From assembly GCA_017399035.1 (NCBI GenBank), contig JAFQEM010000025.1:1-52064 (forward strand): a stretch of 52,064 nt of DNA. The letters are read 5' to 3'. Below the pieces are notes generated by a model that did no database searches, was not told where the DNA came from, and saw nothing but the letters and a program-made list of their open reading frames with translations. Made by a program: the position numbers and the translations under genes. Shown here one piece after another: positions 17,591 through 20,812 of this stretch. Numbering within the stretch: position 1 is the stretch's first letter; every line of letters starts with the position of its first letter. Source of the stretch: Clostridia bacterium. GTDB taxonomy: Bacteria > Bacillota > Clostridia > Christensenellales > Borkfalkiaceae.

Positions 17591-17624
17591 TGCAATAAAA
17601 CAACGCGTTGCTTCGTTTAATAAA
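17591..17624 (+). promoter_or_regulatory. Putative ECF-sigma promoter of the sigma-factor gene
   Basis: TGCAATAAA (17591-17599), 13 bp, TCGTTTAATAAA (17613-17624). The same two boxes with the same 13-bp gap recur upstream of the lipoprotein gene (19194-19227). The arrangement fits an ECF-type -35 and a CGT-containing -10, and positive autoregulation. Only this copy holds the palindrome CAACGCGTTG (17601-17610) in the spacer. The boxes lie 35 bp before the start codon. Confidence 0.65.
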
Positions 17625-17658: not shown

Positions 17659-18180
17659 ATGAATAAAAATGAAATCGGAAAACTTATAACAAAAGTTTCC
17701 GAAGGCGACAATAATGCATTTCTTACGTTATATAAAGCGACTGTCCGTGGAGTGTATGCATATTTATATACTTATTTTAAGAACTCGGCAGACACTCAAG
17801 ATGCAACGCAAACCGTTTATTTGAAGGTAAAAACTAAAAGCAATCAATTTAAATATGGAACTAACGGTTTGGCGTGGTTATTGCAAATTGCAAAAAATCA
17901 CGCGATTGACGTTTTGAGAAAGCAAGATAAAACTGTCCCACTAGAAAACGCTTACGGTGTGTGTGCAAACCAAGTGTGCGAACATAAAAATTCCGTAACC
18001 GAAGTTATGCAAAAAGTTTTATCTGAAGACGAGCAAAGAATAGTGGTTATGCACGTTCTCTGGGGATATAAACATAAAGAAATTGCACTCTTAAACAAAA
18101 CTCCGCTCGGCACGGTAACTTCCAAATATAAACGCGCAATAGCAAAACTTAAAAACGCGTTAAAGGAGGAACGTCAATGA
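17659..18180 (+). CDS. ECF-type RNA polymerase sigma factor
   Basis: 173 residues. Sigma region 2 spans about 10-80 (AFLTLYKATVRGVYAYLYTYFKNSADTQDATQTVYLKV ... GLAWLLQIAKNHAIDVLRK), and sigma region 4 about 118-168 (EDEQRIVVMHVLWGYKHKEIALLNKTPLGTVTSKYKRAIAKLK, a helix-turn-helix). There is no region 1 or 3, as expected for group IV. The stop overlaps the ATG of the next gene by 4 bp (ATGA), the typical sigma/anti-sigma coupling. GGAGAAG precedes the start. It probably transcribes its own operon and the lipoprotein gene. Confidence 0.92.
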   Translation: MNKNEIGKLITKVSEGDNNAFLTLYKATVRGVYAYLYTYFKNSADTQDATQTVYLKVKTKSNQFKYGTNGLAWLLQIAKNHAIDVLRKQDKTVPLENAYGVCANQVCEHKNSVTEVMQKVLSEDEQRIVVMHVLWGYKHKEIALLNKTPLGTVTSKYKRAIAKLKNALKEERQ

Positions 18181-19172
18181 ACTGGAAAAAAAGATGGAAA
18201 AGCGAATTAGATAGCGAAATTTCTAAATTTTCAGATAACGTTTTTTCTGCGCCCGTTACTTCTCAAGTTGGTCAAAATTCGGTTGGCGCATTAAAAATTA
18301 ACAAAAAAAGCATCATTTCAATATCTACCATTGCGCTTGCGTTATTGCTCTCGGTTATTTTAATGTGTTCGTGGTTTATCAAAAAGCCACAACCGCTTAA
18401 TGAAAACGTGTTTGTAATTCAAATAAACCCGTCTGCAGCGTTCGTAGTTGACGGTAACGATAAAGTTAAGTCCGTTTCATCACTTAACTTTGATGCCGAC
18501 GTAATTTTGTCCGACCAGCAAAATAAATCTAACATTATAGGCAAATCGGTACAAGAGGCAACTAATTTTTTTGTTGAAAGCGCAGCCAAATATGGTTATA
18601 TAGACATTGCAGATATAACACTGCATCAAAATGCAGCAGCAATAAAAATCACTTCTTACGGTCAAAAAGATTTTGAATTTTTGCGTTCTTCTATTGAGAG
18701 TGAATTGTCTAAAAACGGAATTCCGTCAGTTGTTTTGTGGAACAAAAGTGAAAGTAAGTCTGATTTTAACAATCTTTTAGGTATTGACGAGACTAAAGAA
18801 GATATTATAGGCGAACTAAAGAATATGTCTAACACCTACGCTGAAAGGGTTGTGGGCGATATAGATAAAATCACGGCGTATTTTCAAAATCTTCTTGACG
18901 GGCTAGAACAGTTAAATCCAGGTTCTGCAATATTTATTCGTAACGTTATAGAACAATATTTAAATGGCGAACAAAACGCTGAAGAATTTATTAGCGAAGT
19001 GATGAACGGCTTGTCTTCACTTAAGGAATTTAGAAAATTTCAATTTGAGCATCTTTACGAGATACCTCGTCAACCTATAGGTAAAGAACAGTTAGAAGAA
19101 ATCCACGGCAAAATCGTAGACGACAACGGCAGTTTAGAAGATTTCTTTAATAATCGTGGACAAAAAAAATAA
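18177..19172 (+). CDS. Membrane anti-sigma factor candidate with RsgI-like Asn-Pro domain
   Basis: 331 residues. A short cytoplasmic N-terminus (1-45, WKKRWKSELDSEISKF) is followed by one membrane span (about 46-68), then an extracytoplasmic domain beginning VFVIQINPSAAFVVDGNDKVKSVSSLNFD. This matches the juxtamembrane domain of RsgI-type anti-sigma factors, in which the Asn-Pro bond is cleaved autocatalytically; here it is N84-P85. The rest (about 195-331) is helical with no recognised carbohydrate-binding domain. Coupled translation with the sigma gene supports the role. The cytoplasmic segment is not a canonical anti-sigma domain, so the assignment is inferred from context and topology. 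Confidence 0.75.
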   Translation: MNWKKRWKSELDSEISKFSDNVFSAPVTSQVGQNSVGALKINKKSIISISTIALALLLSVILMCSWFIKKPQPLNENVFVIQINPSAAFVVDGNDKVKSVSSLNFDADVILSDQQNKSNIIGKSVQEATNFFVESAAKYGYIDIADITLHQNAAAIKITSYGQKDFEFLRSSIESELSKNGIPSVVLWNKSESKSDFNNLLGIDETKEDIIGELKNMSNTYAERVVGDIDKITAYFQNLLDGLEQLNPGSAIFIRNVIEQYLNGEQNAEEFISEVMNGLSSLKEFRKFQFEHLYEIPRQPIGKEQLEEIHGKIVDDNGSLEDFFNNRGQKK

Positions 19173-19193
19173 TTTTAAAAAAATTTAAACCCG

Positions 19194-19227
19194 TGCAATA
19201 AACGGCAAATTTAAATCGTTTAATAAA
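19194..19227 (+). promoter_or_regulatory. Putative ECF-sigma promoter of the lipoprotein gene
   Basis: TGCAATAAA (19194-19202), 13 bp, TCGTTTAATAAA (19216-19227), 25 bp before the lipoprotein start. Both boxes and the gap are identical to those before the sigma gene while the spacer sequence differs, which argues for a functional promoter rather than a recent duplication. Confidence 0.65.
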
Positions 19228-19251
19228 TGAAAAAATAAAGGAGAAAATAAT

Positions 19252-20763
19252 ATGAAAAAATTTATCTCAATTTTGTTAAGTTTAGCATTAACGCTATCAA
19301 TCGGCTTATCAATGGTCGGTTGTACCCCTGCACCCGAAGCAAAATCTGAAGCGTCGTCTTTCGTAAGCATTGATATAAACCCATATCTTGAACTTACGCT
19401 TGACCAAAACGATAAAGTTATGAGCGTTCGTGGGGCAAATGAAGATGGTAACGTTTTACTTTTTGACGTTGAACTTGAAGGTATGAGCGTAGAAAACGCA
19501 GTTGCAGTTATAACTGACCTTGCTCGTAATCTTGGATACGTTGAAGACAATGCGGTTATCAATACCATAGTTACTTCTATCGACCAAGAAAAGTCTGATA
19601 AAATCCGTAACAAAATTAACAACAAAATAACACTTACTCTTGGCGATTGCAACGTTCAAATAGGTGAAGAAGAGGCATATTCATTGCTTAGAAAGTGGGA
19701 AAAATATACTGATGAATATCCCGACCTTAAAGACATTATACCTGCTGAAAAAATAAGACTTGCAGTTTCTGCAAGTGAAACGGGCGTTATAACCATTGAA
19801 GAGGCTCTTACTCTTGACGAAAAAGAACTTATAAAGATAGTTTCTAACGCGCATAAAGAAATGAAAGATATAGTTAGCAAAGAGGCTGAAAAAGAATACG
19901 TTAAGGCAAAGGCAGAAATTGAACAGTTAAAAACTTTACTTCTTGACACGGCTTACACCAAATTCTTTATTGAAAAAGCAGACAGCACTATGTGGTACGG
20001 CGCAACCTATCAACTTTATAATACGCTTGCTATAGGTCTTGAAAGTGCGTCAAAAATTCTCAACGCTAAAAAAGACGTAAGTGATAAAATTATATCTTTA
20101 GTAGATTATCGCACTGAACTTCAAAACATTGCAACTGCTCTCGGTGTTAGTGAGGCAGAATTGATGCAAAACATTATCGGTGGAAAAGGTATCAATATTA
20201 GAGAGATTGAAACTTACGCAAACAAAGTTATTAAAAATAACAAAGAAAATGCAGAAACCATTAAACAAGAACTCAAAGTTGCTTTAGCCGACCTTGAAAC
20301 AAAACTTGGTGGTGGCAATCAGTTTGACATTGACGACGCTGGTATTCTTGACGATATTATTGAAAATGCAAATAAACTTATTAACGGTGGCGATGGTTTT
20401 ATAGGTGTTAAAAATATTAGAACCTACTTCCCATTGATAACCTTTGAACAAGAGTTTGACACTTGGATTAGCGAGTTTGAAACTTATATTCAAGATTTGC
20501 AAAACGCTTTTGCTGACGGACTTCCTACTTCTAAAGAATTCCACGAACTTGCAAAAACGGCAAAAGAACGCGCTAAAGATATGAAACGTAAGATTGACCA
20601 AGTTCTTACCAAAGAAGACAAAGCGGAAATTGAAGAGCAAATGGAACTTTTTGATGCTATGTTCCAAATGCAAAAAGGCGTTTTAGAGACGGCAATCAAT
20701 AACGCAATAGGCAATGCGCAAGATTTTATAGGCGGATTAAGAGGCGAAAAGAACCCTAAATAA
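19252..20763 (+). CDS. Lipoprotein with RsgI-like Asn-Pro domain
   Basis: 503 residues. A signal peptide with lipobox SMVGC (lipidated C24) is followed by SSFVSIDINPYLELTLDQNDKVMSVRGANEDG, the same domain as in the preceding anti-sigma candidate, with N43-P44 at the equivalent site. About 130-503 is predominantly helical and charged, with long amphipathic stretches, and has no family I recognise. It would sit on the outer face of the membrane. Own promoter (see 19194-19227) plus AAGGAG (19240-19245). It may act as decoy, co-sensor or regulator of the anti-sigma factor; that is inference. Confidence 0.8.
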   Translation: MKKFISILLSLALTLSIGLSMVGCTPAPEAKSEASSFVSIDINPYLELTLDQNDKVMSVRGANEDGNVLLFDVELEGMSVENAVAVITDLARNLGYVEDNAVINTIVTSIDQEKSDKIRNKINNKITLTLGDCNVQIGEEEAYSLLRKWEKYTDEYPDLKDIIPAEKIRLAVSASETGVITIEEALTLDEKELIKIVSNAHKEMKDIVSKEAEKEYVKAKAEIEQLKTLLLDTAYTKFFIEKADSTMWYGATYQLYNTLAIGLESASKILNAKKDVSDKIISLVDYRTELQNIATALGVSEAELMQNIIGGKGINIREIETYANKVIKNNKENAETIKQELKVALADLETKLGGGNQFDIDDAGILDDIIENANKLINGGDGFIGVKNIRTYFPLITFEQEFDTWISEFETYIQDLQNAFADGLPTSKEFHELAKTAKERAKDMKRKIDQVLTKEDKAEIEEQMELFDAMFQMQKGVLETAINNAIGNAQDFIGGLRGEKNPK

Positions 20764-20778
20764 ATAAACTCAAAAAAA

Positions 20779-20812
20779 GAAACCGACGTTGTAAAAAAGC
20801 GTCGGTTTCTTT
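20779..20812 (+). terminator. Terminator after the lipoprotein gene
   Basis: GAAACCGACG (20779-20788) pairs with CGTCGGTTTC (20800-20809), A-run before, TTT after. Confidence 0.9.

What the first reader, a model, noticed from the sequence alone, without database searches (positions are those of the whole stretch)
17659..20763. Sigma / Asn-Pro anti-sigma / Asn-Pro lipoprotein: a three-part envelope signalling module
A membrane anti-sigma candidate and an adjacent lipoprotein share the same extracytoplasmic RsgI-like domain, but the lipoprotein has no cytoplasmic part and thus cannot hold the sigma factor. Having the sensor domain duplicated on a lipid-anchored partner suggests competition, titration or ligand presentation. 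I know of no described system with this layout.
Basis: partly seen in the sequence, partly recalled or inferred. Interest (0 to 1): 0.85.

Follow-up and report, generated by a model that had tools for sequence, protein, structure and literature searches.

The report
Sigma switch with self-cutting lipoprotein partner
Relatives of gut Clostridia carry a three-gene circuit in which a gene switch's membrane lock and a surface lipoprotein share a domain that probably cuts itself, and the switch seems to act mainly on its own genes and that lipoprotein, which makes the lipoprotein the likely output.

Summary
Window 17659-20763 encodes an ECF sigma factor, a single-pass anti-sigma and a lipoprotein; the last two carry an RsgI-type self-cleaving (SEAL, Pfam RsgI_M) domain with Asn-Pro at the beta1-beta2 junction. 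The layout recurs: 48 of 91 SEAL loci read; of 74 SEAL-bearing genomes in the family, 62 have the anti-sigma, 60 a SEAL lipoprotein, 49 both. New here: sigma operon and lipoprotein gene carry the same promoter-like motif (CAAYAAAA-N13-YGTTTAAT), with no clear excess elsewhere (7 off-module hits against 10 control hits in 18 genomes). So the lipoprotein is probably a main target of the sigma factor, not merely a spare sensor. Asn-Pro is kept in 71 of 71 lipoproteins, which lack the membrane helix that intramembrane proteolysis needs, but is lost from 3 of 75 anti-sigmas. In one species the lipoprotein ectodomain is fused onto the anti-sigma; in another genus a SEAL-less lipoprotein stands beside sigma under a variant motif. 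Most likely: a small sense-and-respond loop whose output is a releasable surface lipoprotein acting on the cue that the anti-sigma senses. Titration, presentation and feedback remain possible, unproven. Known parts, new arrangement.

The parts
17591..17624 (+). putative ECF-sigma promoter of the sigma/anti-sigma operon (TGCAATAAA-N14-CGTTTAATAAA)
   Evidence: exact two-box match shared with 19194-19227; same motif at relatives' sigma genes
17659..18180 (+). ECF sigma factor, 173 aa
   Evidence: Sigma70_r2 and Sigma70_r4_2 above cut-off
18177..19172 (+). membrane anti-sigma candidate, 331 aa; start overlaps the sigma stop by 4 bases
   Evidence: model pLDDT 86.9
18306..18386 (+). transmembrane segment of the anti-sigma (residues 44-70)
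   Evidence: hydropathy; helix 43-68 in the model
18417..18716 (+). SEAL/RsgI_M domain of the anti-sigma (residues 81-180)
18426..18431 (+). Asn84-Pro85, predicted self-cleavage site
   Evidence: invariant in the 23 anti-sigmas of A2 and the 26 of A5, sets that leave out the three that lost it; between strands 77-82 and 86-91
19194..19227 (+). putative ECF-sigma promoter of the lipoprotein gene, same boxes and spacing
19252..20763 (+). SEAL lipoprotein, 503 aa
   Evidence: lipobox Cys24 invariant in 27 of 27 (A1) and 38 of 38 (A4)
19357..19659 (+). SEAL/RsgI_M domain of the lipoprotein (residues 36-136; the RsgI match runs 44-198)
19378..19383 (+). Asn43-Pro44, predicted self-cleavage site
   Evidence: Pro44 aligns with residue 1 of solved RsgI chains; NP in 71 of 71 lipoproteins
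19852..20760 (+). helical C-terminal body of the lipoprotein (from about residue 201)
   Evidence: helices in the model; no homology to the anti-sigma C-terminus detected
20776..20812 (+). strong RNA hairpin after the lipoprotein, probable terminator
   Evidence: -22.1 kcal/mol, z -7.9; the consensus terminator scan did not list it

Best explanation
A small sense-and-respond loop. Inferred by analogy with RsgI: the anti-sigma holds the ECF sigma factor through its short cytoplasmic segment; its SEAL ectodomain cuts itself at Asn-Pro but stays assembled; a surface cue pulls it apart, a site-2 protease cuts the membrane stump, and sigma is freed. Supported by sequence: sigma then acts at two near-identical promoters, its own operon and the lipoprotein gene, and no further targets stand out. 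The lipoprotein is the output. Inferred: it also self-cleaves, leaving a lipid-anchored stump of about 17 residues that grips a releasable body, and it acts on the same surface cue as the anti-sigma, so that making it relieves the cue and quiets the circuit. What the cue is, and what the helical body binds, is unknown.
For: Shared two-box motif with fixed spacing before both genes in the window and in relatives. Scored at 14 of 17 or more: sigma genes 38 of 67, lipoprotein genes 44 of 69, anti-sigma genes 1 of 69, other ORFs 21 of 420. In 17 further sigma-bearing loci from a second collection: lipoprotein 17 of 17, sigma 14 of 17, other ORFs 4 of 73. Exact hits: 31 of 33 at modules, none in 12 genomes without an RsgI_M match; with one mismatch, 7 off-module hits in 18 genomes against 10 for the reversed pattern. 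Two of five lipoproteins unlinked from their sigma keep the motif (G183, G173), as does a second copy in G149. Genus g41: a SEAL-less lipoprotein upstream of sigma bears a variant motif in four loci. Fusion in G156: anti-sigma N-terminus on a lipoprotein ectodomain. NP in 71 of 71 lipoproteins. Site-2 protease homologues in 6 of 6 genomes searched.
Against: No transcription, cleavage or binding data. That this sigma reads the motif is inferred from autoregulation. The motif was derived from the window and close relatives, so module hits are partly by construction. Three of five unlinked lipoproteins (G090, G091, G118) score below 14. Of 11 genomes with the lipoprotein only, 9 score below 14. 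In the second collection 6 of 12 lipoproteins without a sigma nearby reach 14, 6 do not; in L236-L238 lipoproteins score 15, 14, 13 and sigmas 12, 14, 12. Targets with weaker boxes would be missed; L213 has a third motif before a small membrane protein. Outside the family the trio was not clearly seen in 7 order-level loci: five had sigma and anti-sigma only, one a lipoprotein only, one an uncertain pair with sigma. The own genome is 69% complete and showed no LspA hit.
Confidence: 0.5

Rival explanations
1. Feedback decoy: the lipoprotein's main job is to compete with the anti-sigma for the same ligand or surface attachment and shut the response off; it has no effector role.
For: Same domain on both proteins; sigma-type promoter at the lipoprotein; in G156 the lipoprotein ectodomain serves as anti-sigma ectodomain.
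Against: No homology between the C-terminal bodies was detected (hhalign probability 3.5), so a shared ligand would have to bind the SEAL domain. If the lipoprotein were only feedback the circuit would have no visible output. Lipoproteins occur in genomes where no SEAL anti-sigma was found (11 of 74).
Confidence: 0.2
2. Accessory sensor: the lipoprotein presents a ligand to the anti-sigma or binds its ectodomain, as RseB does with RseA, and sets its sensitivity.
For: Gene adjacency in 48 of 91 loci; anti-sigmas of genus g6 lost Asn-Pro while their lipoproteins kept it; CseA is a lipoprotein in a sigma operon whose loss raises sigE promoter activity (PMC6767563, passages).
Against: Tree agreement beyond shared history is weak; lipoprotein subfamilies differ beside related anti-sigmas, e.g. 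L114 and L108 against L095.
Confidence: 0.2
3. Plain target: the lipoprotein is an envelope protein whose SEAL domain is only a stalk or anchor module, with no link to sensing.
For: SEAL lipoproteins without a SEAL anti-sigma found in 11 of 74 genomes; a SEAL-less lipoprotein takes the place in genus g41.
Against: The G156 fusion and the repeated linkage.
Confidence: 0.1

Closest known systems
SigI/RsgI with SEAL autoproteolysis (B. subtilis, C. thermocellum)
   Same: Single-pass anti-sigma with the same domain fold and an Asn-Pro at the position where solved RsgI chains begin; same expected release route (PMC12203970 abstract, introduction and passages; PMC10202637 passages).
   Different: Sigma is ECF type, not SigI; no RsgI_N domain found; a second SEAL protein on a lipid anchor that is itself a likely sigma target.
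sigE-rseA-rseB (E. coli) and mucA-mucB
   Same: Sigma, membrane anti-sigma and an extracytoplasmic third protein (RseB in passages of PMC10202637; gene order and mucA-mucB recalled).
   Different: RseB is not lipid-anchored and does not share a domain with RseA (recalled); here both extracytoplasmic proteins share one, and the third gene has its own promoter-like motif.
sigE-cseA (Streptomyces)
   Same: Lipoprotein encoded in a sigma operon; its loss raises sigE promoter activity (PMC6767563, passages).
   Different: There a two-component system and no anti-sigma; the sigE promoter is not a sigmaE target (same passages).

Membership tests
RsgI anti-sigma-I factor | extracytoplasmic SEAL/RsgI_M domain with Asn-Pro | tested here: met
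RsgI anti-sigma-I factor | single transmembrane helix between cytoplasmic part and SEAL domain | tested here: met
RsgI anti-sigma-I factor | cytoplasmic RsgI_N domain | tested here: not met
   no such hit at E up to 1 in Pfam
RsgI anti-sigma-I factor | SigI-type partner | tested here: not met
   partner matches ECF-type region 2 and region 4 models
RsgI anti-sigma-I factor | autoproteolysis and release by site-2 protease | not testable with these tools
   only the site, the fold and a protease homologue were checked
ECF sigma factor | sigma regions 2 and 4, adjacent membrane anti-sigma | tested here: met
ECF sigma factor | transcribes its own operon | tested here: inconclusive
   inferred from the shared motif only
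bacterial lipoprotein | n-region, hydrophobic stretch, lipobox Cys | tested here: met
   MVGC, C24 invariant in 27 of 27
bacterial lipoprotein | signal peptidase II in the organism | tested here: inconclusive
   5 of 6 genomes; none in the 69%-complete own genome
RseB-type third component | RseB fold or family | tested here: inconclusive
   no such hit in the Pfam scan; the fold lists exclude nothing

The most novel reading that the evidence does not exclude
Strand exchange closes the loop: self-cleaved lipoprotein bodies released from their lipid stumps re-cap exposed anti-sigma stumps (or the reverse), so two proteins that share one split fold regulate each other by trading a beta strand at the membrane surface.
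Probability: 0.07. Interest if true: 0.88.

Novelty: new variant of a known kind. Interest (0 to 1): 0.62.

Why it matters
RsgI-type SEAL domains are explained as the self-made first cut in intramembrane proteolysis of anti-sigma factors. Here the cut site is kept in every lipoprotein examined (71 of 71), on a lipid-anchored protein without the membrane helix which that pathway needs, and that protein looks like a main product of the sigma factor. The case makes testable whether such domains also serve as releasable anchors, and offers a compact model of a sigma circuit whose regulon may be little more than itself.

Tried and rejected

Rows dropped or relabelled: L176 was called TM by my rule but has an LNGC lipobox and counts as LIPO (genome census), yet as anti-sigma in the tree and as TM in the gene-order tally. 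Anti-sigma genes of L095, L205 and L210 were called LIPO through a chance Cys and are counted as TM; L167 likewise. L105's 5'-truncated first ORF counts as anti-sigma in the genome census. G027 (L184, truncated) stays unclassified. The tree used 142 of 148 SEAL ORFs. A4 used 37 of 43 related lipoproteins and A5 25 of 32 anti-sigmas (short, near-duplicate, Bacilli-type or atypical rows left out). The 17 further loci are those of 31 with sigma that remain after 11 whose contig lengths equal earlier ones and after L236-L238; L217's lipoprotein was skipped by a filter and scored. L096's motif lies inside an over-extended ORF, so it scored low although the exact hit falls before the likely start. 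In one search, other ORFs starting within 400 bases of a module gene start were left out.

Full report
What is there. The three ORFs stand at the stated coordinates with a 4-base overlap between sigma and anti-sigma and 79 bases between anti-sigma and lipoprotein. Pfam gives an ECF-type sigma factor and the RsgI_M domain in both other proteins. No other RsgI_M match was found in the 69%-complete genome. The anti-sigma has about 43 cytoplasmic residues, one membrane helix and the SEAL domain; no RsgI_N domain was found. The lipoprotein has a lipobox at Cys24, the SEAL domain from residue 36 and a helical body to residue 503. A strong hairpin follows.

How common. In 201 genomes of the family, 74 have SEAL matches. 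In these, by my own N-terminal classification: 62 with an anti-sigma, 60 with a lipoprotein, 49 with both (44 in one locus, 5 unlinked), 13 anti-sigma only, 11 lipoprotein only, 1 unclassified; some genomes are incomplete and some contigs short, so the single-partner counts are soft. Gene order in the 91 loci read: sigma, anti-sigma, lipoprotein in 39; lipoprotein, sigma, anti-sigma in 9; sigma and anti-sigma only in 19; lipoprotein only in 20; the other 4 partial (loci chosen for SEAL hits, a few from genomes outside the 74). Seven order-level loci outside the family (L188-L194) gave sigma and anti-sigma only in five, a lipoprotein only in one, and in L188 two SEAL proteins with sigma, the first of uncertain type. 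No other gene is consistently nearby.

History. In a tree of 142 SEAL domains, lipoprotein and anti-sigma labels need 4 changes against 47.5 in shuffles; the domain is short and many forks are weak. One row placed among the lipoproteins, L176, is in fact a lipoprotein. The true exception is L119 (G156): its first 90 residues match only anti-sigmas (7 at 1e-3, no lipoprotein); its ectodomain matches 60 lipoproteins and 43 anti-sigmas, as the shared domain implies, best a lipoprotein at 1.8e-89; its C-terminus matches 24 lipoproteins and 1 anti-sigma. It follows the sigma gene, and G156 (94% complete) shows no other SEAL match. So the lipoprotein ectodomain can stand in for the anti-sigma ectodomain. 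Over 48 modules distances correlate for sigma and anti-sigma (0.82), sigma and lipoprotein (0.52) and anti-sigma and lipoprotein (0.48), each above 2000 of 2000 permutations, but the last falls to 0.11 once sigma is accounted for.

The promoter. The window's sigma and lipoprotein genes are preceded by TGCAATAAA-N14-CGTTTAATAAA with identical spacing (the pattern came from these sites, so the shuffle test there is circular). Many relatives show the same pair. Scoring 17 positions, 14 or more were reached by 38 of 67 sigma genes, 44 of 69 lipoprotein genes, 1 of 69 anti-sigma genes and 21 of 420 other ORFs; of 48 complete modules, 37 lipoproteins, 34 sigmas and 31 both. Of the 17 modules that miss, nine carry variants such as TTGCGATAAAA or CAACGAAA with TTGTATATA. 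Genome-wide, exact matches occurred in 21 of 38 genomes: 31 of 33 hits at modules, none in 12 genomes without RsgI_M, 1 hit for the reversed control. With one mismatch in 18 genomes, 25 hits were at modules and 7 elsewhere, against 10 control hits. Of five lipoproteins unlinked from their anti-sigma, those of G183 and G173 bear the motif and those of G090, G091 and G118 do not; the sigma genes of G090 and G091 also miss, while that of G118 scores 15 with a 14-base spacer. A second lipoprotein in G149 bears it. Of 12 genus g41 loci without a SEAL lipoprotein, five bear a variant (CAACAAAA with YGTTATATR), in four (L122, L168, L175, L181) before a SEAL-less lipoprotein upstream of sigma; these four are among the 21 other ORFs above. 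L213 has a third motif before a small membrane protein.

Reading. The simplest account is that the sigma factor drives its own operon and a lipoprotein, and little else that a strict motif can show. A lipoprotein has no transmembrane helix for a site-2 protease to cut, so strict retention of Asn-Pro suggests that the cut itself, giving a body held only by a short lipid-anchored strand, is useful. I take the lipoprotein as the output, acting on the cue that the anti-sigma reads. Shown: anatomy, predicted fold, linkage, motif pairing, the fusion. Inferred: cleavage, sigma specificity, feedback, the cue.

Known ground. RsgI self-cleavage, RseP and ClpXP steps: PMC12203970 (abstract, introduction and passages seen). 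RsgI cleaved constitutively and held together until a wall defect: PMC10202637 (passages). CseA: PMC6767563 (passages). Brogan et al. 2023 on SEAL domains is known to me from its citation and by recall; it is not held. I noticed no description of a SEAL lipoprotein in the listings; most subscription papers are not held.

Noticed in passing
L122, L168, L175, L181 (also L123, L173, L121, where the motif pattern was not found): In genus g41 the gene before sigma is a lipoprotein of another family with no Pfam match above cut-off; in four of these loci it is preceded by a variant of the same motif.
   Followed up: partly
L119:3809-5203: Natural fusion of an anti-sigma N-terminus and membrane helix with a lipoprotein-type ectodomain (G156).
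   Followed up: yes
L072, L087, L091: Anti-sigmas of genus g6 have lost Asn-Pro while the neighbouring lipoproteins keep it.
   Followed up: partly
L157, L159, L160, L163-L166, L174: SEAL lipoproteins of about 380-400 aa with no sigma found nearby, in genomes where no SEAL anti-sigma was found.
   Followed up: partly
L213:4211-4240: Third copy of the motif before a 179-aa membrane protein between anti-sigma and lipoprotein.
   Followed up: partly
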